Part shown: in pieces, positions 3-12,574 of the stretch | Layout: each line of letters starts with the position of its first letter | Position numbering within the stretch: the first letter of the stretch is position 1 | Assembly: GCA_016209155.1 (NCBI GenBank) | Contig: JACQWU010000193.1 | Coordinates: 1-13,699 of the forward strand | Length of the DNA stretch: 13,699 nt | Reading direction: 5' to 3' | Source: Candidatus Desantisiibacteriota bacterium | GTDB lineage: Bacteria; JACRDZ01 | Program-made: the position numbers and the translations under genes | The notes under the pieces: model-generated | Told to the model about the DNA's origin: nothing | Databases searched by the model: none | What the model saw: the letters and a program-made list of their open reading frames with translations, nothing else

Positions 3-1565
3 TTAGATAATTCCTATTTTTTTTCCGGCTTTTTCAAGCGCATTTAAAGATATTTCTAAATCTGCTAAAGTATGAGTAGCCATTATACTAATCCTTAATC
101 GCGATTCATTTCTTTTTACTGCTGGATATACCACAGAACTAACAAATACACCTTTTTCCCCTAACATTTCTGTCATTTTAAACGTTTTTTTATTTTCACC
201 AACGATGATTGGAATTATAGCTGATTCTGTATTCCTGATATTAAAACCCAATTTTTTCATGCCATCTTTCATAAATGCAATATTAGCCCATAACTGTTTC
301 CTTATCTCAGGCTCGTTTTCAATAACATCAATAGCAGTAATAATACCAGCAGAAACACTTGGCGGCAAACTTGTGGTAAAAAGAAAAGATCTGCTTCCTG
401 TATTCTTTAAATATTGTATGATTTTTTTATTCCCCGCGATAAATCCACCAATGCTTCCAAGTGCCTTACTTAGAGTACCACCGATTATATCAATCTTTCC
501 CATAAGATTAAAATATTCCGATGTACCTTTCCCTTTTTCTCCAATTACTCCTGTTGCATGAGCATCATCAATCATTACCGCAGAATTATATTCTTGCGCT
601 AAAATATAAATTTTATCTAATTCAGCAATATCTCCATCCATACTAAAAACACCATCGGTTATTATTAATTTATTTTTTTCTTCACCATATTTTTTAAGCT
701 TTTTCTCAAGATCAATCATATCGTTATGATTAAAGATTAAAAGTTCGGCACCTGATAAATTACAACCATCTATAATACTTGCATGAGCTTTTTCATCAAT
801 AATAACCACATCTTCTTTTCCCAGAAGTCCGGAAATTGTTCCTATATTAGTAGTATACCCCGTGCTATAAACAACACAATCTTCTCCTCCTTTAAATTTA
901 GCTAATTTATATTCCAATTGATTATGTAAATCTAATGTTCCTGAAAGAATTCGTACCCCACCCGATCCGGTTCCATATTTTTCAATTGCTTTAATTGCAG
1001 CCTCTTTCACTTTAGGATGAGTGGTTAATCCTAAATAATTGTTTGACCCAAGATTAATCATCTCTTTTTTATTTATTATTATTCTATCTGCGGAAGCAGT
1101 TGATAATTCTCTAAAGAAACAAATTTTTTCCTGTGAAAGAAATTCGTGAACTATTTTCGAATTAATACATTTTCTAAACACTCCTTTTACTAATCTTCTT
1201 TCGATCTTTCTTTTATCCTCCGGCGTACCTAAATTATTTTTTCGCCTTTCAAACTTATCTCTTCTTTCATCTATTTTTTTATTAGAACTAATATTATTAA
1301 GATACTCATTAAACATATCAGCATCATACTCTTCATTCCACTTTATAAAAATAATACCATAACAAAATTCTTTTATTGATTTTTCCAGTATCCAAATAAT
1401 TCTTCCCTTTCCTTGAACATATTTTTTATCCGGTAGGGTGATTAGATAATCTATTTTTCGGGATATAGGGATAGACTTATCTGATATAACTTTAAATCCC
1501 TGTTCGCTAATATTATAAATTTTACCTTTTATATCTTCATTATCAATTTTTATTTCAACAAACAA
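3..1565 (-). CDS. PilZ domain-linked alpha-oxoamine synthase (AONS/KBL/SPT family, PLP-dependent)
   Basis: Residues ~130-520 form a fold-type I PLP enzyme that condenses an amino acid with an acyl-CoA, releasing CO2 and CoA. Visible motifs are GSNNYLGL (173-180), YGTGSGGVRILSGT (197-210), DDAH (D333, H336) and GTLSKALG with the Schiff-base lysine K367. Which member it is (8-amino-7-oxononanoate synthase, 2-amino-3-ketobutyrate ligase or serine palmitoyltransferase) cannot be read from sequence; no biotin or sphingolipid genes are nearby. Residues 1-95 are a PilZ domain (NISEQG, 18-23), followed by an Arg-rich linker (DERRDKFERR). The first usable start is TTG at 1563-1565 with only a weak purine-rich stretch upstream, and it cuts the PilZ fold: the arginine motif LQRRVHHRRI is encoded in frame just upstream. 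The frame stays open to a TAA at 1692-1694. The true N-terminus is therefore uncertain. The C-terminus is complete. Confidence 0.82.
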   Translation of the reverse strand: MFVEIKIDNEDIKGKIYNISEQGFKVISDKSIPISRKIDYLITLPDKKYVQGKGRIIWILEKSIKEFCYGIIFIKWNEEYDADMFNEYLNNISSNKKIDERRDKFERRKNNLGTPEDKRKIERRLVKGVFRKCINSKIVHEFLSQEKICFFRELSTASADRIIINKKEMINLGSNNYLGLTTHPKVKEAAIKAIEKYGTGSGGVRILSGTLDLHNQLEYKLAKFKGGEDCVVYSTGYTTNIGTISGLLGKEDVVIIDEKAHASIIDGCNLSGAELLIFNHNDMIDLEKKLKKYGEEKNKLIITDGVFSMDGDIAELDKIYILAQEYNSAVMIDDAHATGVIGEKGKGTSEYFNLMGKIDIIGGTLSKALGSIGGFIAGNKKIIQYLKNTGSRSFLFTTSLPPSVSAGIITAIDVIENEPEIRKQLWANIAFMKDGMKKLGFNIRNTESAIIPIIVGENKKTFKMTEMLGEKGVFVSSVVYPAVKRNESRLRISIMATHTLADLEISLNALEKAGKKIGII

Positions 1566-1772: not shown

Positions 1773-2219
1773 ATGAATATTCCGGAATATATTACCATTG
1801 TAGAAACGAAAAGAGTCTGCAAAGAGCTTAAGATCAGTGATTGGACGAAATTAAAAGATCCGGTTAAAGTTTCACCTAAAGAAGCAAGTATAATACTCAA
1901 AGAAGTAAATAAGGAAAAGATGGAAGTATCACTCGATCAATTCTGCGCGGGTCTTGAAGTGGAGCTTGAGCATGGGACAAGATTTAAGGATGTAAATGTA
2001 ACTAATAATCATCCAATTTTGACAGGTAAAATAGTGCTTGCTCATATGAAAGAATCACTTGATTATTACAAATATCTCGAGGTTGCGGAGCTGGAAGGTG
2101 ATCTGAATAAAGCTGTTAAAAATAAAGATCTAAAAAAGATAACAGATAAATATAAAAAACTTATTAAAGCCAAACTCATTCTTAATAATGCTGAGATGAG
2201 TAACTATTCAGGTGAATAG
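1773..2219 (+). CDS. DUF5661 family protein
   Basis: A 148-residue soluble protein. The central stretch, residues ~56-105, carries the family pattern: GLEVELEHG, then NVTNNHPILTGKIVLAHM and DYYKYLE. This resembles the short DUF5661 proteins found in bacteria and phages, whose function is not known. The N-terminal ~55 residues and the lysine-rich C-terminal helix (DLNKAVKNKDLKKITDKYKK) are extra to the conserved core. The start is well supported: AAGGAG lies 7 nt before the ATG. The stop codon TAG is the first base triplet of a dispersed hairpin repeat, so the transcript probably ends or is protected there. It stands alone between leftward genes. Confidence 0.72.
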   Translation: MNIPEYITIVETKRVCKELKISDWTKLKDPVKVSPKEASIILKEVNKEKMEVSLDQFCAGLEVELEHGTRFKDVNVTNNHPILTGKIVLAHMKESLDYYKYLEVAELEGDLNKAVKNKDLKKITDKYKKLIKAKLILNNAEMSNYSGE

Positions 2220-2315
2220 ACTGAAGGCTAAAGGCTTTTAGGAAATCATGTGTAATACTACAGAATTTTGTGCATTATGTTGTGGCTAATATCCTTCAGT
2301 CTTCAGCCTAAATAC
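2217..2315. repeat. dispersed hairpin repeat, copy 1
   Basis: Left arm 2217-2241 (TAGACTGAAGGCTAAAGG, then CTTTTAG) pairs imperfectly with right arm 2285-2315 (GCTAATATCCTTCAG, then TCTTCAGCCTAAATAC) around a 43-nt loop. The second copy at 10813-10885 matches it at 23 of 25 left-arm and 30 of 31 right-arm positions. One arm difference (T2300) changes a G-C pair to G-T, so pairing is kept. Here it lies between convergent genes and overlaps the DUF5661 stop codon, so it could act as a bidirectional terminator-like or mRNA-end structure. Confidence 0.8.
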
Positions 2316-2324
2316 TTGCATTAA

Positions 2325-2747
2325 TTAAAACACTCCTGAGGATCCGAATCCTTCACCTCGTCCGGTTTCATTGAGTTCAGTGGATTTAATAAAATTCGCT
2401 TGCTCAACCTTTTGGATTAAAAGCTGGGCAATCCTCATACCGGTTTCAACTTTAAAAAGCTCTTTGCCGTGGTTATGCAATAGTATACAGACATTATCTC
2501 TATACTCGCTGTCTATTACTCCCGCCAGTGTATCTAATCCATGCTTTGCGGCAAGTCCGGAACGCGGCCATACGAGGCCCACATAACCGCCTGGAATTTC
2601 AAGTGCGATATCTGTTTTTACAGCTACATATTCTCCCGGCGGAATATCTTTATTTTCAGCGCTATAAAGATCCGCGCCTGCATCGTACATATTTTTTCTT
2701 ACCGGCAATTTACCTTTTTCAGAAAGTAATTTTACTTTAACTATCAT
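2325..2747 (-). CDS. dut: deoxyuridine 5'-triphosphate nucleotidohydrolase (dUTPase)
   Basis: A trimeric-type dUTPase of normal length (140 aa) that hydrolyses dUTP to dUMP and pyrophosphate, keeping uracil out of DNA and supplying dUMP for thymidylate synthesis. All five family motifs are present in order: DAGADLYSA (22-30), PRSGLAAKHG (61-70), GVIDSEYRDN with the catalytic D79 and uracil-stacking Y82, GMRIAQLLI (103-111) and GRGEGFGSSG (129-138). The start is ATG 2747-2745 with GGAGAG 8 nt upstream. The ATG overlaps the stop of the preceding FnIII/VCBS gene as ATGA, so translation is probably coupled, although dut has its own binding site. Its 3' end faces the hairpin repeat. Confidence 0.96.
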   Translation of the reverse strand: MIVKVKLLSEKGKLPVRKNMYDAGADLYSAENKDIPPGEYVAVKTDIALEIPGGYVGLVWPRSGLAAKHGLDTLAGVIDSEYRDNVCILLHNHGKELFKVETGMRIAQLLIQKVEQANFIKSTELNETGRGEGFGSSGVF

Positions 2748-4948
2748 TGATATATCTCTCCAGTAAATTGGTAATATTTCTCAATAATATATTTCCCCGC
2801 AGAATTATTAAATAAATACCTGTCTCTTATAATTTTTAACTTTTGCAAAAAATAAATTGAGCGGCAGGTTAAACTATTTGATATTATACATGGCCCGGTA
2901 CCGCTGGAATGCACTCCGGAGGAAGTATTGGAAAATTGCTTACCTTTAAAAAACAAGACCTCACCCTCAGCATTTCCGACAATTAAATCCATTACATTAT
3001 CATTATCCCAATCAATCCAGAATGGATGCGCATTATTACCGATATCAATATTCCCTCCGTCGGAAATTGCGAAAATTTGATAAGAAAAAACATTATTACC
3101 ATTATTTTTACCATAATATATCATGCCGTTTACTTCACCTAAAATAATATCATTTGTTTCTATATCATCCCATCTGCTGAAAATAAAAAATCCATTTACA
3201 CTTAATTTTTCTCCGTTTACATATAAAGAAAAATTACCCTCCCTCTCTAATATAGGTTTATAATCTGTACCTTTGTTAATATATATAGTTAACTTACCAT
3301 CTCTTCCGCCTATGACAAGATCCTTTTTGTTATCGAATTTATTATTGTATTTCCAATCAACAACAAAAGGGACAGCATCATTTCCGACATCAATTTCTAC
3401 CCCGCTGATATCTTTTAAAATTTCAGGGATACTCCATTCCGGGGATATGTCTGTCCCTGTATTTTTAAAAAGATATACTTTGCCGTCACTTGAACCAACA
3501 AGCAGATCTTTTTTTTCGTCATCATCCCAATCAACAACAAATGGCGAAGCATTTCCGGTTACATGGAGGTTATCACCGGAAACTTTTAAAAATTCCTCTG
3601 AATTATTTAAATTTGGAGATTTATATAGTTTTACAAAACCGTTCGCATCTCCCACTAATAAATCCTTATTCCCGTCATTATCCCAGTCAACAACGAATGG
3701 CATAGCATATAAACTCTTTGTGTCAATAAGCATGGCCTCTTTATTAAATATTATATTTTCAGCAGGGATTGCTTTTTTAATATTGATATTCGAGATTTGC
3801 ATATTAATATCAGATATGTTGTAGTAATTAGAATTTTTGGACGATATTAAAGTAAGAAAATTTTTTTTAGGATAAAGATAAATATCAAATGTTTCTTTAT
3901 TTTTAACTATTCCGATATATTGTCCTTTGTATGCATAATTTCCATTTTTATAGATCTTAACTTCTTCGAAAATAGGTGAATTAAAAACAATTTTGTTAAA
4001 TCCCCATGATTTTCCGGAAATATCCTTATATTCATTATTCATCTCATCTATCGCAGTAACCGCAAAATAATAAATATTGTTTTCATTTAAATTATCAAAT
4101 ATATAAATTTTAGTGCCTGCTTTAGTACTGTCAAAAAGCAAATTAGAAGATATAAAATCAAAAGGTTCCATTGATTTATAAATCCTGTAAAGAATAACAT
4201 CTTTTTCTTTTGATTCATTATATACATCCCAATCCAATTTAACACTCCCCGGTGTTGTTCCCGGACCTATATAGAAATCTACAGGAGACGGAGGATTAAT
4301 ATCAAGAGTGGGAATAGCTATTTTCGTTTCCACTTCTTTATTTTCATTTCCTGCTTCATCCACTGCAGTAACTGCAAAATAATAAGCTGAGCCATTATCA
4401 AGTCCGCTTGCCGTAAAAGTTGAATCATTCTTTATCTGTGTAAGCAATATGGCATCAGATATATTCTGATAGGATAGTAATTTTTTATAATATAAATTGT
4501 AATGTTCTATATCATCCGCAGAACTTCCTCCTTTCCAGCTTAAATTTACTTTACCGCTTGAATTATCATCTTCAGCGCTTAAGGTAGTAATTTTGAAAGG
4601 AGCTGTTGTATCGGACATAACAATAGAAACCGGTGTAATTATCGAAAAATTTTCCATTTCATCATAACTGAATACTCCATAATATGCTTCAGTTCCATTA
4701 GACAAAGAATCTTTATAGAATGAAGTAGAATCAAATCCCATAAATAATTTATCTCCGTCATCAGGAGAAGACGGCTGTCCGGATAAATTGCGGACTATTT
4801 TTATTCCCTTAAAATCATTATCGTTTGGATTATGCCATGACAGAGTCACATGGGAATCTCCATCTGAAACTATTTTTAAATCTGTAACAGGTCCGGGAGG
4901 AGTATTATCACCTACATAACGTGCACTATAACTATAACCGTACTGCAT
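2744..4948 (-). CDS. FnIII and VCBS/FG-GAP repeat protein with CFI-box C-terminus; C-terminal part of the interrupted metalloprotease
   Basis: Three fibronectin type III domains (about 16-110, 115-212, 218-312; each starts with a TPP/TAP/NPP-like turn and has YYFAVTAxDE) are followed by a linker and five VCBS/FG-GAP-like blades (near 417, 468, 527, 587 and 641) of the pattern PFVVDWDxDxxKDLLVG. The tail (about 686-730, CIIS then KIIRDRYLFNNSAGK) resembles a degenerate CFI-box, a C-terminal module of secreted proteins. There is no signal peptide. ATG 4948 has no Shine-Dalgarno, and the same frame is open upstream to the TAA at 5093-5095, encoding YGNETSEEIPILNN and IILIPAV, the normal continuation of MXAN_6640-type proteases. 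It is therefore probably not an independent gene but the distal part of the upstream one. It overlaps dut by 4 nt. Confidence 0.75.
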   Translation of the reverse strand: MQYGYSYSARYVGDNTPPGPVTDLKIVSDGDSHVTLSWHNPNDNDFKGIKIVRNLSGQPSSPDDGDKLFMGFDSTSFYKDSLSNGTEAYYGVFSYDEMENFSIITPVSIVMSDTTAPFKITTLSAEDDNSSGKVNLSWKGGSSADDIEHYNLYYKKLLSYQNISDAILLTQIKNDSTFTASGLDNGSAYYFAVTAVDEAGNENKEVETKIAIPTLDINPPSPVDFYIGPGTTPGSVKLDWDVYNESKEKDVILYRIYKSMEPFDFISSNLLFDSTKAGTKIYIFDNLNENNIYYFAVTAIDEMNNEYKDISGKSWGFNKIVFNSPIFEEVKIYKNGNYAYKGQYIGIVKNKETFDIYLYPKKNFLTLISSKNSNYYNISDINMQISNINIKKAIPAENIIFNKEAMLIDTKSLYAMPFVVDWDNDGNKDLLVGDANGFVKLYKSPNLNNSEEFLKVSGDNLHVTGNASPFVVDWDDDEKKDLLVGSSDGKVYLFKNTGTDISPEWSIPEILKDISGVEIDVGNDAVPFVVDWKYNNKFDNKKDLVIGGRDGKLTIYINKGTDYKPILEREGNFSLYVNGEKLSVNGFFIFSRWDDIETNDIILGEVNGMIYYGKNNGNNVFSYQIFAISDGGNIDIGNNAHPFWIDWDNDNVMDLIVGNAEGEVLFFKGKQFSNTSSGVHSSGTGPCIISNSLTCRSIYFLQKLKIIRDRYLFNNSAGKYIIEKYYQFTGEIYQ

Positions 4949-5077
4949 GTAAGTGGTATCTGACGTGCATACAGCCGGAATTAAAATTATTTTTTTATAT
5001 TCGCTCCCAAAGTTTTTGACAATTGCTTCACCTCTATTATTTAATATAGGAATCTCCTCGCTTGTTTCATTTCCATA

Positions 5078-5094
5078 TTTTTTTTTTTTTTTTT
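5078..5094 (-). repeat. A17 homopolymer at the break in the metalloprotease gene
   Basis: The plus strand has 17 consecutive T (A17 in the coding strand). The stop codon TAA of the upstream half consists of the T before the tract plus its first two A. The tract continues as lysine codons and then the in-frame second half. Such runs are prone to replication, transcription and sequencing slippage, so the exact length is doubtful. Confidence 0.85.
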
Positions 5095-6475
5095 AATTAA
5101 CTCTCCATACATTCTCACTGCTGTTCGTGCCATCACTCTGAAAAACAATTTCTAAATTGGAATCAAGATTTTCACTGTTAAATATTATATAATTTGCGCC
5201 CCAATTATATGGTTTTTTTAAATAGGGCGGAAAACTGTTATTTATAGGATAAGCATAATAATCATATATAGCTGCAATTTCAGGATAATATGCTCCATCA
5301 TAATAATATTTACCCTGATGCAGAAATTTATTATGGTTTATACCTGTAAAATAATTATAAATTGTAAAAAAAGGGAAAACATCTCTCATGTCAGCCGCAT
5401 ATCTTGCCCTTAATGCCCGCTTAATTGCTTCTGTTGCCTGAATTTTATTTGTATCTTTCATTGCGCATTCTTCCCATATATATTTTATCACGTTAACATC
5501 TTTAAAATAATCAGTTAAGAATATAGGAAAAATACCTGCGGCATAATGATGATTTGGACCAGGATTAACTATTGATCTATTGCGATCTAAAGCTATCCAC
5601 GGATAATTAAAAAAATCTTTTAAAAAAACAAGATACCCGTTTATATCGGGATAGGTTTCTTCTTCCATCCATACGGAAGATGCCTCACACCACCATATTT
5701 CCTCAAGCCAGTCATATGAGTTCTGAATAGCATGAAAAAATTCATGAGCGGCTGTAATGCGTAATGCATCAAGAGGATCGGAAAAACCATAAACATTAAA
5801 AGGAAAATCATTATCAATAACAATAAAACTCGGATAGGTTGTTTTTTTACTATCATTAATATTACCCTCCGGTTGTGTATATCCAAACCATTTTCTAATA
5901 TCGAGATTTAGTAAATAAATATCATATTTATTATTTCCGCCTAACCCTGCATCTGATTCCGGCTTTTTATATCCTAATTCATCTATTTCATGAACCCATA
6001 CAGATTCAAATATCGACGCGCATTTTTCCACGTAATCCGGAACATTATTACTATTATTATCGGTAAGCGGGACCAGATTATTTCTTGAGCTTTTTGTTTT
6101 GGTATAATGAACTCTAAAATTCCCGTTAATAATCTCATAATCAAGAACTGTTTCTGATTTATCAAATTGAAAATCATCAGACTCCTCGCTAAATTCTGTA
6201 GGGCGTCTGAAAAACTTTCTTATGGTTTTTGACCGCGCAGCCTTAGATAATTTATTAAAATTTAAGTACAATTCTTTAAAATCCGAAGTACCGCATTTTG
6301 CATGAGAGGAAAAATTATTCGATTTTTTTTCTTTAACTTTAGAATATGAAACCGGAATAAGTCCGGGCGAAATACTGTATATTTCAGACAAATCAATATC
6401 TTCTCCAAAAACATTACCGGCACAAAAACAGCAAAATAAAAAAATAGCTATTAAATACATATTTCTTGCTTTCAC
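5093..6475 (-). CDS. secreted MXAN_6640-like putative zinc metalloprotease, N-terminal part of an interrupted gene
   Basis: Starts at GTG 6475-6473 with AAAGGA upstream. Residues 1-24 form a signal peptide (MKARNMYLIAIFLFCCFCAG, then NVFG), probably cut by signal peptidase I; no good lipobox. The catalytic region has the zinc motif HEFFH (244-248), followed by WWCEASSVWMEE, in which E264 is the likely third ligand, a gluzincin layout. TDNNSNNVPDYVEK (138-151) and DAGLGGNNKYDIYLL are further hallmarks of this family. The frame ends WRVN-TAA at the start of an A17 tract and then continues open in the same frame into the FnIII/VCBS part. The natural protein would be about 1240 residues, exported and probably cell-surface or extracellular. 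Lies 21 nt downstream of the zinc-ribbon gene, so likely one operon. Substrate unknown. Confidence 0.82.
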   Translation of the reverse strand: MKARNMYLIAIFLFCCFCAGNVFGEDIDLSEIYSISPGLIPVSYSKVKEKKSNNFSSHAKCGTSDFKELYLNFNKLSKAARSKTIRKFFRRPTEFSEESDDFQFDKSETVLDYEIINGNFRVHYTKTKSSRNNLVPLTDNNSNNVPDYVEKCASIFESVWVHEIDELGYKKPESDAGLGGNNKYDIYLLNLDIRKWFGYTQPEGNINDSKKTTYPSFIVIDNDFPFNVYGFSDPLDALRITAAHEFFHAIQNSYDWLEEIWWCEASSVWMEEETYPDINGYLVFLKDFFNYPWIALDRNRSIVNPGPNHHYAAGIFPIFLTDYFKDVNVIKYIWEECAMKDTNKIQATEAIKRALRARYAADMRDVFPFFTIYNYFTGINHNKFLHQGKYYYDGAYYPEIAAIYDYYAYPINNSFPPYLKKPYNWGANYIIFNSENLDSNLEIVFQSDGTNSSENVWRVN

Positions 6476-6983: not shown

Positions 6984-7838
6984 TTATAAGCTATTTTTGC
7001 TTTTTATTCTATTTTTTTCACGGGTTTTAATTATTTTTGCTCTAATTTCCGGATCATGGATAAATCCCAGCATCATTTTCCGCTGTTCAGGGTTCTTCCA
7101 TCTTTTTTTAGCAGCTTTGCTTAATTTAGCTTTATATTCAGGATCCATTTTTATCTTCATTAATCTATCTCTCTCTTGAGGATTATGCCACATTTCTTTA
7201 ATTGTTTTTACCAGTTTTTTCCTATTTTTAAGGGAGTTTAATTTTTTTAGCATTTTCCCTCTGTATTCCGGATCTTTCCATCTTTTTAATGATTTCTTTC
7301 TAATAACTGCTCTAACCTCAGGATCTCTCAAATGCATAATTCTTTTAGCTTTAAATTCAGGGTTTTCATTCATTTTTATAAAATTTTTTATTCTTCTTTC
7401 TCTATCTTTACTTTTTCCCCAGCTTTCTTTAATTGATTCAGTCATCATTTTTCTATATTTAGGATTCTTCCATCTTTTCTTAGCTTTCTCACTAAGGATC
7501 GCTAACATTTTAGGATTTTTCATATTTTCCCGAAGAACTTTTTCTATTTTTGCACGAGATTTGGGATCATTCCATCTTTTTTTAATGATTTTGCTAAATC
7601 GCTCTGAAAGTTGTTTTCGAAACACCGGATTTTTCAATTTTTGTCGAAGCCTGTAAGTAGTATTATAAAGAAGTAAAGGCGAGACTAATGCAGCATCTTT
7701 ATATATTTTTCTATATTCCCGCATTTCCATAGTATGTTCTTTATATAAATGCGATGCAGTGATTCTTTGATACCAATTATGACATATTGCACATTGAATT
7801 TTATCATCTAATATTTTATTATTAATTTTTCTTTTCAT
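6984..7838 (-). CDS. zinc-finger protein with a long array of NUMOD3-like basic repeats, probable DNA-binding protein
   Basis: A 284-residue, strongly basic protein. The N-terminus has a C2H2 finger, C16-x2-C19-x10-H30-x4-H35, followed by EYRKIYKDA, similar to Ros/MucR-type fingers with one extra residue in the loop. From about residue 66 to the end runs an array of short helical repeats of the form KKRWKNPEYRKKM. The Pro positions (71, 92, 109, 126, 160, 173, 190, 220, 233, 250, 263, with degenerate units at 143 and 203) are spaced 17 or 13 residues apart. Such repeats resemble NUMOD3-type DNA-binding modules of homing endonucleases, but no GIY-YIG or HNH catalytic motif is present. Start ATG 7838-7836 has AAAGGG 7 nt upstream and its own promoter. 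Function is inferred as sequence-specific DNA binding; a stand-alone relic of a homing enzyme is also possible. Confidence 0.7.
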   Translation of the reverse strand: MKRKINNKILDDKIQCAICHNWYQRITASHLYKEHTMEMREYRKIYKDAALVSPLLLYNTTYRLRQKLKNPVFRKQLSERFSKIIKKRWNDPKSRAKIEKVLRENMKNPKMLAILSEKAKKRWKNPKYRKMMTESIKESWGKSKDRERRIKNFIKMNENPEFKAKRIMHLRDPEVRAVIRKKSLKRWKDPEYRGKMLKKLNSLKNRKKLVKTIKEMWHNPQERDRLMKIKMDPEYKAKLSKAAKKRWKNPEQRKMMLGFIHDPEIRAKIIKTREKNRIKSKNSL

Positions 7839-7973: not shown

Positions 7974-9296
7974 ATGGAGATGGATCATGATGAATATAAA
8001 CTTCTTTTTGCGCCAATACTTGCAAAAGAAGAAATAGCATCCATTCTTAGCCCTTATGGATTTAAAGATATACCCAAAGCTGATAATAATATACAGCTTA
8101 TAGCCGGGGATCCATTACAAAGAAAAGTTTTTGCGATTTTCTTTATCCATTTATTGAAAATCCTTGGGGAATCTCCTGATCCTGATATGGCTCTTAATAA
8201 TATGGAAAAATATATCAGGAATGTAGCAAGCCCTGTTTCCTTATTTTCTTTTTTTGCAAATAATTTAAAACCTCTGGAAATATTAATCTTGATATTGTCA
8301 CATAGCCAGTTTTTTTCAGATATAATATGCATAAATACAACCTATTTTGACTGGCTTTTTGAATCAAAAAATATAGGAATTGCTAAAACATCCGCAGACT
8401 TTTCATATGATATTAATGAAATGCTTAAATCCGTTAAAAGTTTTGAAAAAAAAACCAATATACTCCGTATTTTTAAACGCCGGGAAATACTCAGAATAGG
8501 TGTAAACGATTTAATTGATGCTCTTTCGCAGGAAGCAGTCATGCGGCAAATTTCTCTCCTTGCTGAAACTCTGCTCGAAGCAGCATATCAAATATCGAAA
8601 GAAGAACTCCAGCTAACATATGGAATACCAAAAACACCTCATAAAGAGGAGGCTGATTTCTGCATAATAAGCATGGGAAAATTGGGCGGAGAGGAGTTAA
8701 ATTACAGTTCAGACATTGATATTATTTTTATTTATTCTGATGATGGAGAGGTAGAAAATACAGATAAGAAATCTCAAAATATAATTTCTAATCTTGATTT
8801 TTTCACAAAACTTGCAGAGATGATTATCCGTCATATTTCAAACATTACAGATGAAGGTTATTGTTTCAGGGTTGATACACGCCTTAGGCCTGACGGCAAA
8901 TCAGGACAACTGGTGCGCAGTCTTGAAAGTATGGAAAAATATTATTACAGTCATGGAGAAACATGGGAACGGCAGGCACTTATTAAAGCCAGAGTTGCAG
9001 CAGGAGACAGGAAACTCGGAAAAACTTTTCTTAAAAAAATTGATGGTTTTATATACAGAAAATATCTTGATTACCAGGCAATTCAGGAAATAAAAATGCT
9101 TAAAAATAGAATCGAACAGGAAGTTGATAAAAAAGAACTTTTTGAGCGTGAAGTAAAATTGGGATATGGCGGAATTCGCGATATTGAATTCACCGTTCAG
9201 TTTCTTCAGCTTTTACATGGCGGAGAAAATGAAATTTTAAAAAATACAAATACATTAACGACCTTAAAAAATCTTTTCATCGGAATAAACCTATAG
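7974..9296 (+). CDS. glnE: glutamine synthetase adenylyltransferase/deadenylylase, N-terminal (deadenylylase) part, truncated
   Basis: GlnE adds and removes AMP on glutamine synthetase in response to PII and glutamine; the N-terminal half carries the deadenylylation activity. Here it has RIFKRREILRIGVNDLI (165-181), GKLGGEELNYSSDIDIIF (235-252) with the metal-binding pair D247/D249, RVDTRLRPDGKSG (299-311) and GYGGIRDIEFTVQFLQ (397-412). It stops after TLTTLKNLFIGINL, where the helical segment AYxFLRxxEHRLQ...MGY should follow. The reading frame downstream, one base back (-1), picks up again with RNKPIDTK and EEFRKDYKMHTENIRQ, so about 45-50 residues appear lost together with the frame. Start and ribosome binding site are sound. 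As it stands the enzyme is broken or misassembled. Confidence 0.88.
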   Translation: MEMDHDEYKLLFAPILAKEEIASILSPYGFKDIPKADNNIQLIAGDPLQRKVFAIFFIHLLKILGESPDPDMALNNMEKYIRNVASPVSLFSFFANNLKPLEILILILSHSQFFSDIICINTTYFDWLFESKNIGIAKTSADFSYDINEMLKSVKSFEKKTNILRIFKRREILRIGVNDLIDALSQEAVMRQISLLAETLLEAAYQISKEELQLTYGIPKTPHKEEADFCIISMGKLGGEELNYSSDIDIIFIYSDDGEVENTDKKSQNIISNLDFFTKLAEMIIRHISNITDEGYCFRVDTRLRPDGKSGQLVRSLESMEKYYYSHGETWERQALIKARVAAGDRKLGKTFLKKIDGFIYRKYLDYQAIQEIKMLKNRIEQEVDKKELFEREVKLGYGGIRDIEFTVQFLQLLHGGENEILKNTNTLTTLKNLFIGINL

Positions 9297-9349: not shown

Positions 9350-10837
9350 ATGCATACAGAAAACATACGGCAGGTTTTTATGCATCTGTTCCAGGGGCTA
9401 TTTCAGTATAATATAGAGCAGGCTGAGGAAACCGATTTGATATTAAATCCTAATCCGGACGGGACTTTGATATTAAATATTCTTTCCCGCTATAATTTCT
9501 ATGATATAAAAAAAGCATATAAAAACCTTAAACTTTTAAGTGAGCGTGATATTTTTACCCCTTATACTTTCCGTACAAAAAAATATTTAGCTAATATTTT
9601 GCCTATACTTTTAAAAGGATGTTATTCCTCATCCCGCCCTGACCGGGCATTAAATAACTTTGAATATTTTACAGGGAAATTAGGCGCTAAAACTATATTT
9701 TATGAAAGTTTGAAATCAAGTCCCAATATGATCTCAATACTGACTAATATTTTTGGCACAAGCATTTATCTTAGCGATATTTTAATGCAAAATCCTGAAT
9801 TCCGTGATCTTATAGTTAAAATACTCGGGACTATTCTTACCGGAATAAATTTTTTTATGCATAAAAATATGCAAAGGACAATGAAAGCCCTTACACAGCT
9901 TGCTTTATTTATTCTGGAAAATATATTTTATACAAACTGGGAAAATTCACAATTAAAAGGGAAGATCTCTTTATGTATTTTAAGTCTCGGGAAATTGGGC
10001 AGAAAAGAACTTAATTTTGACTCTGACCTGGATATTATATTTTGTTATGAAATACATCAAGACCATATTAATTCTAATGAATCTATGGAAATTCATTATA
10101 TGGTTTGCGAGTGGATAAAAAAATTTTTACAGGATATGCAGAAAATATATAAAGTTGATTTGCGATTACGCCCCATGGGAAACTCCGGAGAATTGGCAAT
10201 CCCATTATCTCGGTTTCTGGAATACTTTCAAAAACAGGCACGCACATGGGAAAAAATAGCTTTTCTTAAAGCAAGTTTTGGCGGTGGAGATAAAAAAACA
10301 GCAGAAAAATTAATAACAGGTATTCGAAAAATAATATTTGCGTCACTATCAAACGAAAAACTCTTATATGATATTATTGAAATTAAAAATTTGATAGAAA
10401 AAAATACTAAAGATAGTGCCAATGATTTCAAACATGGAATCGGCGGACTTATGGAAATTGAGTTTATAATAGATTATATAGTATTAAAAAGTGGTATGGA
10501 AAAATATTTTCTGTCCGGTACAGGGACTACCAACTCATTAAAAATTTTAAAAGAATTAAAAATAAAAAAACTTATTACTTCCAAAGACTATAATATTCTA
10601 AAAAATGCATATATATTCCTTATGCATATTGAAATGACACTCCGGCTAAATATGACAGGTGAAAAAACATATATTCTTTCAAATGATCCTGAATGGATTA
10701 CTTTAGCGGCCAGACAGATGGGATATAATACTGTGGAACAATTTATATCACAATACAAAAAAAATTCCGCTTGCGTAAGAGATATATTTGATAAATTAAA
10801 TATTCAGGTTGATAGACTGAAGGCTGAAGACTTTTAG
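9350..10837 (+). CDS. glnE: glutamine synthetase adenylyltransferase, C-terminal (adenylyltransferase) part of a broken gene
   Basis: The nucleotidyltransferase half that adenylylates glutamine synthetase: GKLGRKELNFDSDLDIIF (214-231) with D226/D228, KVDLRLRPMGNSGEL (268-282), TWEKIAFLKASFGGGD (299-314), GIGGLMEIEFIIDYI (363-377) and the closing helical bundle AYIFLMHIEMTLRLN...ARQMGY (420-459). ATG 9350 has no convincing Shine-Dalgarno, and the frame is open upstream to 9233, overlapping the first part by 64 nt, so this is probably a continuation, not a separate gene. The spacing from LSDI (141-144) to GKLG is about 47 residues shorter than in the N-terminal half, and the basic 'KRREILRIG' motif is absent, suggesting a second, in-frame deletion. 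The last residues, RLKAEDF, are encoded by the dispersed hairpin repeat. Confidence 0.85.
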   Translation: MHTENIRQVFMHLFQGLFQYNIEQAEETDLILNPNPDGTLILNILSRYNFYDIKKAYKNLKLLSERDIFTPYTFRTKKYLANILPILLKGCYSSSRPDRALNNFEYFTGKLGAKTIFYESLKSSPNMISILTNIFGTSIYLSDILMQNPEFRDLIVKILGTILTGINFFMHKNMQRTMKALTQLALFILENIFYTNWENSQLKGKISLCILSLGKLGRKELNFDSDLDIIFCYEIHQDHINSNESMEIHYMVCEWIKKFLQDMQKIYKVDLRLRPMGNSGELAIPLSRFLEYFQKQARTWEKIAFLKASFGGGDKKTAEKLITGIRKIIFASLSNEKLLYDIIEIKNLIEKNTKDSANDFKHGIGGLMEIEFIIDYIVLKSGMEKYFLSGTGTTNSLKILKELKIKKLITSKDYNILKNAYIFLMHIEMTLRLNMTGEKTYILSNDPEWITLAARQMGYNTVEQFISQYKKNSACVRDIFDKLNIQVDRLKAEDF

Positions 10838-10885
10838 ATACAGATCGCATAATTGCTAATATCCTTCAGCCTTCAGCCTAAATAC
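10813..10885. repeat. dispersed hairpin repeat, copy 2
   Basis: Left arm 10813-10837 pairs with right arm 10855-10885 at 20 or more positions around a 17-nt loop. Arms are nearly identical to those of copy 1, while the loops are unrelated in sequence and length. The element overlaps the 3' end of the glnE fragment: its left arm encodes RLKAEDF and the TAG stop. It separates glnE from murJ and could stop or attenuate transcription. Confidence 0.8.
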
Positions 10886-10893
10886 CTGAATAG

Positions 10894-10921
10894 TTACAAA
10901 AAGTTAAACCTGTGTTAAAAT
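10894..10921 (+). promoter_or_regulatory. candidate promoter of murJ, possibly leaderless
   Basis: TTACAA (10894-10899) and TAAAAT (10916-10921) are separated by 16 bp. The murJ ATG begins 7 nt after the -10 box, where transcription itself would start, and no Shine-Dalgarno precedes the ATG. Confidence 0.35.
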
Positions 10922-10927
10922 ACTTCT

Positions 10928-12574
10928 ATGCTGAAAAAATGGTTTAACAAAGAAACAACTTCAATAAGCGCGGGTGCTGTTATTCTGGCTTTTTCATCTC
11001 TTACCAGCCGTATTATAGGAATACTGCGCGATCGTATTCTTGCCGGCAAATTCGGAGCGGGCGATGCTCTTGATATCTATTATGCTTCTTTCCAGATACC
11101 TGATTTTTTTTACAATATTTTTATTCTTGGAACACTTTCAGTAGCTTTTATTCCCATATTCACATCATATATCAAAAAAAACAATGAATATACTTTTAGC
11201 GAAGAAGCTATGGATTTTACAAATACTATAATTAATGCCACTCTTATCGGAATGGGAACAGGCTGTCTTTTGCTCATGCTATTCACCCCTGCTTTTATAA
11301 CTTATGTAGCTCCGGGATTTACAGGTGAAAAAAGAGAAACAGCAATAGATATTACAAGAATAATACTTATATCTCCGTTTATTTTCAGCATAAGCAGTAT
11401 TTTAAGCAGTATATTGACGTCGTTTAAACGCTTCATCGCTTTTTCTTTTTCGCCGATACTTTATAATTTAGGTATAATTTTCGGAGCATATTTCTTTGCT
11501 CCGATTTGGGGAGTTAAAGGCCTTGCCATGGGAGTTGTGCTTGGTGCATTTTTACATATGCTGATTCAAATCGCTCCGGTAAAAAATATTGGATATGTAT
11601 ATAAAAAAATTATAAACCTTAAACTTCCCGGAGTCAAAGAATTCAAACGTCTTTTCATTCCAAGAATTTTTGGAATAGATATTTCACAGACAAGTCTTTT
11701 AATCGGCAGTATTATAGGATCCACCTTAAGCACAGGCACTATTACCATATTTAATCTTGCAAACAATCTCCAGAGTATGCCGATTGGTCTTTTCAGTATT
11801 TCACTTGTTAGCTCTGCATTCCCGCATCTGGCGGAAGCCTATTCTCAAAAAGACTTTAATCAATTCGGAGAAATTTTTTATAAAACCGCATCCAAAATTC
11901 TTTTCTTCATAATACCTTCCGCAATATTTTTATATGTATTGCGTATACCTATTATTAAATTTATTCTGGCAACAGGCAAATTCACCCAAAAAGATGTAGC
12001 AATAACCGGCGCAGTGCTTGGATGCTTTTATTTCAGCCTTTTCTCACAGGGAATGACTCCGCTTATTCTGCGATGCTACTATTCAATGCACGATACAATA
12101 ACTCCGTTTATAATAAACCTTATAAGTATTGCGATTGATGTGACGGCATCCTACCTATTCATTAAATTATTAACACCTTCAACAGAATTTTACTTATTCA
12201 GTCAAAAAATATTAAATCTGACAAACTACGAGGATATAAGAGTTATGGGACTTGTACTGGGTTTTTCCCTAACAAGCATTATCCATATGACCATGTTATA
12301 TTTCATTCTGCATTTGCGTGTTAAAAACCTATACGGTAAAAAACTTCTTATTTCTTCATTAAAATTTCTCTTCGCATCTATCATAGCGGGTTTTATTTTA
12401 AATTTTCTCAAGCACTATTTAGAAACATTACTGCCATCTCAAAACATACTGACTCTGGCTTTAATACTGATAGCATCAGGCATAATAGGAATTTTGATAT
12501 ATACGTTTATCTCATGGATATTAAAAGTGGAAGAGATTATATCGATTAAAAAATGGTATTTGTTGAAAAAATAA
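10928..12574 (+). CDS. murJ: MurJ/MviN-type lipid II flippase
   Basis: A 548-residue polytopic membrane protein of the MOP superfamily that moves lipid II across the inner membrane for peptidoglycan synthesis. The N-terminal signature is clear: SLTSRIIGILRDRILAGKFG (24-43), then DALDIYYASFQIPDFFYN and GTLSVAFIPIF. About 14 hydrophobic segments can be traced, including the two extra C-terminal ones usual for MurJ. The second-helix region reads NIFILGTLS where proteobacterial MurJ has RRxFAEGA, so two charged residues important in E. coli are replaced; similar forms are familiar from divergent phyla. SSAFPHLAEAYSQKD (297-311) and GMTPLILRCYYSMHDTITP are further family blocks. Start ATG 10928 lacks a ribosome binding site but aligns with the expected N-terminus. 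Monocistronic, downstream of the hairpin repeat. Confidence 0.92.
   Translation: MLKKWFNKETTSISAGAVILAFSSLTSRIIGILRDRILAGKFGAGDALDIYYASFQIPDFFYNIFILGTLSVAFIPIFTSYIKKNNEYTFSEEAMDFTNTIINATLIGMGTGCLLLMLFTPAFITYVAPGFTGEKRETAIDITRIILISPFIFSISSILSSILTSFKRFIAFSFSPILYNLGIIFGAYFFAPIWGVKGLAMGVVLGAFLHMLIQIAPVKNIGYVYKKIINLKLPGVKEFKRLFIPRIFGIDISQTSLLIGSIIGSTLSTGTITIFNLANNLQSMPIGLFSISLVSSAFPHLAEAYSQKDFNQFGEIFYKTASKILFFIIPSAIFLYVLRIPIIKFILATGKFTQKDVAITGAVLGCFYFSLFSQGMTPLILRCYYSMHDTITPFIINLISIAIDVTASYLFIKLLTPSTEFYLFSQKILNLTNYEDIRVMGLVLGFSLTSIIHMTMLYFILHLRVKNLYGKKLLISSLKFLFASIIAGFILNFLKHYLETLLPSQNILTLALILIASGIIGILIYTFISWILKVEEIISIKKWYLLKK

What the first reader, a model, noticed from the sequence alone, without database searches (positions are those of the whole stretch)
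2217..2315. Dispersed hairpin repeat with conserved arms and variable loop at gene 3' ends (copy 1)
Two copies in 14 kb share arms at 23/25 and 30/31 positions, yet their loops differ completely (43 against 17 nt). The T2300 change keeps pairing as G-T. Both copies overlap a stop codon. This pattern suggests a family of short palindromic elements inserted at 3' ends, selected for structure.
Basis: seen in the sequence. Interest (0 to 1): 0.6.

Follow-up and report, generated by a model that had tools for sequence, protein, structure and literature searches.

The report
Oriented IS66-type mini-transposon hairpins before genes
The two hairpins are members of a family of about 56 short, old copies of a mini-transposon (the non-coding kind moved by IS66-type insertion sequences); in this bacterium nearly all sit in one orientation in the gap between a stop codon and the next gene's start, which suggests that the leftovers were kept because they do something for the gene that follows.

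Summary
In detail: two copies, arms 23/25 and 30/31 identical, both touching stop codons. The genome holds about 56 copies. Relatives occur as multi-copy families in MAGs labelled Nitrospirae, Nitrospinota, Deltaproteobacteria and Magnetocorallium. Young copies there end in GTAACTACTCAGGT…ACCTGAGTAGTTAC and carry 8-bp target duplications (81% identity against 34% shuffled, at no other length). The same terminus closes IS66 insertion sequences in Magnetocorallium and matches published ISDge4 (IS66/ISBst12). So this is an IS66-type MITE, not a Y1/REP element.

In the window's genome the transposition tips and duplications have eroded (tips 42% identical, random 28%) while the arms persist (88%). 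Copies lie in one orientation: a start codon follows the right arm within 60 nt in 39 copies and the left arm in 5 (p=1e-7). In 34 of 43 copies with a same-strand upstream gene, that gene's stop lies in or within 6 nt of the left end. Young families show no orientation bias (11:11); older deltaproteobacterial ones do (19:1). Orthologous copies evolve slower in the arms than in the tips or left flank.

I read it as a MITE retained as an oriented stop-to-start leader. Compensatory pairing is absent, so "selected for structure" is unproven. The mechanism is inferred.

The parts
2200..2209 (+). copy 1, left transposon tip GTAACTATTC (intact)
   Evidence: matches the terminus GTAACTAYTCAGG of young copies and IS66 ends
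2210..2241 (+). copy 1, left arm AGGTGAATAGACTGAAGGCTAAAGGCTTTTAG; holds the stop TAG (2217-2219) of the DUF5661 gene 1773-2219
2242..2285 (+). copy 1, near full-length hairpin tip, homologous to tips of other copies and of other phyla
2286..2317 (+). copy 1, right arm CTAATATCCTTCAGTCTTCAGCCTAAATACTT
2318..2327 (+). copy 1, right transposon tip, decayed (GCATTAATTA for GAATAGTTAC); overlaps the stop of the convergent dUTPase gene (2325-2747, -)
10796..10805 (+). copy 2, left transposon tip, decayed (TTAAATATTC for GTAACTATTC)
10806..10837 (+). copy 2, left arm; its last three bases TAG are the stop of the glnE ORF 9350-10837
10838..10855 (+). copy 2, short loop (deletion form of the tip)
10856..10887 (+). 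copy 2, right arm CTAATATCCTTCAGCCTTCAGCCTAAATACCT
10888..10897 (+). copy 2, right transposon tip GAATAGTTAC (intact)
10928..12574 (+). murJ (lipid II flippase), the gene that copy 2 precedes (40 nt from ACCT to ATG)

Best explanation
[quoted passage not shown] The full element is about 120 bp and almost wholly self-complementary, with GTAACTAYTCAGGT ends and 8-bp target duplications. In this genome it is no longer visibly mobile: tips and duplications have eroded. About 40 of 56 copies have been retained, by selection I infer, in one orientation as leader segments filling the gap between an upstream stop codon and the Shine-Dalgarno site of the next gene. Shown: family, IS66-type ends and duplications in relatives, orientation and position bias, unequal decay of arms and tips, slower evolution of the arms in orthologous deltaproteobacterial copies. 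Inferred: that retention is by selection, and that it works in the mRNA. The likeliest mechanism is an intercistronic hairpin that sets off the downstream cistron, as a site for cleavage (for instance by RNase III), as a block to 3' exonucleases for the upstream message, and as a spacer keeping the downstream ribosome site clear. Confidence about 0.85 for IS66-MITE origin, about 0.5 for selective retention, about 0.3 for this particular mRNA mechanism; the figure below is for origin plus retention.
For: About 56 copies. Related families in 15 other genomes searched, up to 54 matches each. Sharp GTAACTAC...GTAGTTAC ends with 8-bp duplications, 0.81 against 0.34 shuffled at k=8 only. IS66 copies in Magnetocorallium end in the same GTAACTACTCAGGT with eight different flanks; published ISDge4 (ISBst12 group of IS66) has GTGACTACTCAGCA/GTAACTGCTCAGCA and an 8-bp repeat (PMC12898284); the window's genome has an IS66 remnant preceded by GTAACTATTCAGC. 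Start codon near the right end 39, near the left end 5, p=1.4e-7, robust to ORF cut-off; older delta families 19:1 after removing orthologous duplicates; young families 11:11 (Fisher, focal against young, 0.0015). Tips 0.42 (random 0.28) but arms 0.875 in the same copies; young families 0.79 and 0.92. Orthologous copies: arms 390/408 identical, tips 63/72, left flank 293/335; p=1.6e-5 for arms against tips, left flank and loop together. Downstream genes are diverse and mostly housekeeping (murJ, lpxB, uvrA, gyrB, pdxA, accA, ksgA-type, gidB, seryl-tRNA synthetase N-terminal domain), and start about 25 nt after the right arm with a Shine-Dalgarno between.
Against: No excess of compensatory changes; the commonest state at pair 17/105 is a mismatch. 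Folding energy does not differ between strands in a way that explains the orientation. No 8-bp duplication survives in the window's genome. IS66 was found in 5 of 15 element-bearing genomes. Better arm preservation at oriented sites than elsewhere is only a trend (p=0.08). Within the young genomes, copies that lost their duplication are not clearly more oriented. The ortholog test rests on six pairs, and one of them does not show it.
Confidence: 0.55

Rival explanations
1. The copies are plain decayed MITEs without function. The orientation and place reflect how the transposase chose targets (for instance transcribed operon junctions, with a polarity), followed by removal of harmful insertions.
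For: All copies are dispersed and diverged, covariation is absent, genes after them share no theme, and most lie between genes as any tolerated insertion would.
Against: Young families of the same element show no polarity (11:11), so insertion itself is not polar there. Neutral decay should erode tips and arms alike; they differ within the same copies and between orthologs.
Confidence: 0.25
2. The element is an outward promoter (or carries a site for a DNA-binding protein) that drives the gene beyond its right arm, which would explain the one orientation.
For: The right arm of focal copies carries a conserved CTAATAT; a promoter-like pair GTTACA-17-TAAAAT spans the right end of copy 2.
Against: The promoter-like hit is at the number expected from shuffles (0.7), and none was found at copy 1. 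The spacing upstream of CTAATAT varies from copy to copy with the loop, and the delta elements with the same polarity that were read lack CTAATAT there.
Confidence: 0.12
3. The copies are REP/BIME-type elements spread by the genome's Y1 (RAYT-like) transposases, which make no target duplications.
For: Six Y1_Tnp genes in the genome, four of them in open frames of 330-367 aa; no target duplications in the focal copies.
Against: In the four Y1 loci checked, none is flanked by the element. Size (about 100-120 bp) and ends differ from GTAG/CGTC REPs (PMC3733652). Relatives of the same element show 8-bp duplications and IS66 ends.
Confidence: 0.05

Closest known systems
IS66 family insertion sequences, ISBst12 group (ISDge4; PMC12898284)
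   Same: terminal GTRACTRCTCAGC-type repeats and 8-bp target duplications; the ends of IS66 copies in Magnetocorallium match the element's ends over the first 14 bases
   Different: about 120 bp, no transposase gene, almost fully self-complementary
ERIC and Correia/NEMIS MITEs (review PMC10969869)
   Same: short palindromic non-coding transposable elements, mostly intergenic; the review reports that Correia-containing transcripts are cut by RNase III and that ERIC changes transcript stability
   Different: different sequence; from my own knowledge those duplicate TA, here 8 bp with GTAA ends; here a strict orientation toward the next gene's start
REP/BIME with RAYT (Y1) transposases (PMC3733652)
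   Same: dispersed palindromes between same-strand genes
   Different: REPs are 20-40 bp with GTAG or CGTC tags and lie mostly downstream of genes; here longer, IS66-type ends, tied to the downstream start

Membership tests
IS66-family MITE | terminal inverted repeats equal to those of an IS66 element | tested here: met
   GTAACTACTCAGGT shared by young MITE copies and eight IS66 ends in Magnetocorallium; in the window's genome only a few copies keep their tips
IS66-family MITE | 8-bp target duplication | tested here: met
   met in relatives (weaker in deltas); not detectable in the window's genome
IS66-family MITE | no coding capacity, short, multi-copy | tested here: met
   about 70-150 bp, about 56 copies
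IS66-family MITE | IS66 transposase present in the same genome | tested here: inconclusive
   two PF03050 matches, both partial, in the window's genome; 5 of 15 other element-bearing genomes; genomes are incomplete MAGs
IS66-family MITE | mobilised by IS66 TnpC | not testable with these tools
   needs a transposition assay
REP / RAYT-associated palindrome | copies flank the Y1 transposase gene | tested here: not met
   four of six Y1 loci read; no element beside them, one has a single short arm-like string
REP / RAYT-associated palindrome | 20-40 bp with GTAG or CGTC tag | tested here: not met
   consensus length and ends against PMC3733652
Known structured RNA family (Rfam 15) | match above gathering score | tested here: not met
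   no match in the window
Structure-selected RNA hairpin | compensatory base changes above controls | tested here: not met
   2 pairs with a change on both sides observed, 4.6 in shuffles

The most novel reading that the evidence does not exclude
A transposon-derived hairpin has been domesticated as a standard, oriented stop-to-start leader in front of some 40 mostly housekeeping genes of one bacterium, and separately in deltaproteobacteria, acting on mRNA processing or translation of the downstream cistron.
Probability: 0.3. Interest if true: 0.75.

Novelty: new variant of a known kind. Interest (0 to 1): 0.55.

Why it matters
MITEs are usually treated as selfish debris, with single cases of regulatory effect. 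Here one element occurs in MAGs assigned to several phyla at different ages: young families are unoriented with intact ends, older ones are oriented with worn ends and preserved arms. That gradient would make it possible to test how transposon remnants turn into genome-wide mRNA elements.

Tried and rejected
REP/Y1 origin. Known Rfam family. Hairpin stability differing between strands as the cause of orientation. Covariation as proof of RNA structure. Intrinsic terminators (none). A regulon theme among downstream genes (none). Empty-site comparison at glnE-murJ: same-phylum genomes have murJ, but glnE is not beside it. Literature search for the sequence strings gave no paper (only openly licensed full texts are searched). 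The organism could not be named: the collection scan may leave out the window's own genome, and only three same-phylum genomes are held, in which the element was not found.

Full report
Check. Both copies are as described: the arms are 23/25 and 30/31 identical and the loops 43 and 17 nt. Each folds better than nearly all shuffles, on either strand. The true extent is about 2200-2327 and 10796-10897. The whole genome (3.08 Mb, 352 contigs, 79% complete MAG) holds 83 sites of the 15-mer with up to 2 mismatches against 7 for the reversed control, and a covariance model built from 24 copies finds about 56 distinct places.

Anatomy. The focal consensus is ATTCAGGTGRATAGACTGAAGGTGGAAGGCTTTTAGGTACAAAT - tip - GACTAATATCCTTCAGYCTTCAGYCTAAAYACCTGAAT. 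The tip ranges from almost nothing to tens of nucleotides. The long form, of which copy 1 is one, is homologous to the tip in other phyla (CAATCATGCGTGATCAT...GGTATTATGAGTGATAG), so short loops are deletions.

What it is. A scan of 84,980 species genomes with CTTCAGYCTAAAYACCTGAAT gave 16 places in unrelated MAGs (about 0.5 expected by my own estimate). All 15 genomes then searched with the model (14 of those and one) had matches, up to 54 per genome, counting both strands. In Nitrospirae SZUA-215, Nitrospinota B83T1B8 and Magnetocorallium the ends are sharp: GTAACTAC(T/C)... ...GTAGTTAC. In 20 copies with intact ends the flanking 8 bases match at 81% against 34% for shuffled pairs, and at no other length. 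Eight IS66 copies in Magnetocorallium end in the same GTAACTACTCAGGT, followed by eight different flanks. ISDge4, of the ISBst12 group of IS66, is reported with GTGACTACTCAGCA/GTAACTGCTCAGCA ends and an 8-bp direct repeat (PMC12898284). The window's genome carries an IS66 remnant preceded by GTAACTATTCAGC. Hence an IS66-type MITE. IS66 itself was found in only 5 of 15 element-bearing genomes, which incompleteness or loss may explain.

Age and place. In the window's genome no duplication remains (0.317 against 0.305 shuffled at k=8). Tips are near random (0.42; random 0.28), while arms in the same copies are at 0.875; young families have 0.79 and 0.92. Detection through the arms cannot produce this contrast within copies. 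The copies are polar: a start codon lies within 60 nt of the right end in 39 and of the left end in 5 (p=1.4e-7; much the same with ORF cut-offs of 50 or 110 aa). In deltaproteobacterial genomes, whose tips and duplications are partly worn, it is 19 to 1 after removing orthologous duplicates; in the young families 11 to 11. From the right arm to the start the median is 24.5 nt with a Shine-Dalgarno between (32 copies). Of 43 copies with a same-strand upstream gene, 34 have its stop within 6 nt of, or inside, the left end. Copy 2 fits the rule (glnE stop in the left arm, murJ after it); copy 1 does not, as it lies between convergent genes, both of whose stops fall in the element.

Constraint. 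Six orthologous copies between delta genomes: arms 390/408 identical, tips 63/72, left flank 293/335, right flank 319/335 (the right flank runs into the next gene). No compensatory changes above shuffles, so the constraint, if real, is on sequence or on keeping the arms as they are, not visibly on pairing. Downstream genes share no theme and are mostly housekeeping.

Reading. Origin as an IS66-type MITE is well supported. Retention by selection as an oriented stop-to-start leader is the best account of polarity together with unequal decay, but the evidence is statistical and the ortholog set small. The mRNA mechanism is inference by analogy: Correia transcripts are cut by RNase III and ERIC changes transcript stability (review PMC10969869).

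Noticed in passing
window 7974-9296 and 9350-10837 (+): glnE is split into two ORFs, both with GlnE/GlnD_UR_UTase domains: a frame break near 9296, real or an assembly error.
   Followed up: partly
window 5077-5093: A long T run separates two minus-strand ORFs, 2744-4948 (fn3, FG-GAP) and 5093-6475; it may be one gene broken at a homopolymer (slippage, phase variation or sequencing error).
   Followed up: no
window 6984-7838 (-): A 284-aa ORF containing degenerate internal repeats (repeat families D1, D2, D5); Pfam gives only weak hits.
   Followed up: no
window 3-1565 (-): PilZ domain fused to a class I/II aminotransferase in one ORF.
   Followed up: no
L121, L122, L123, L125, L126, L127 (IMG/VR): Viral contigs carry lone right arms CTTCAGCCTTCAGCCTAAAYACCT (CTTCAGTCTTC.. 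variant in places); in L121, L125 and L126 shortly after a stop and directly before an ATG.
   Followed up: no
L056 (C199), L046 (C36), L073: A second palindromic repeat (GGGCAAGGCTTTAGCCTTGC / GGGGCAGGTCTTGCACCTGCCC) lies next to some copies; it may be the true REP of the genome's Y1 transposases.
   Followed up: no
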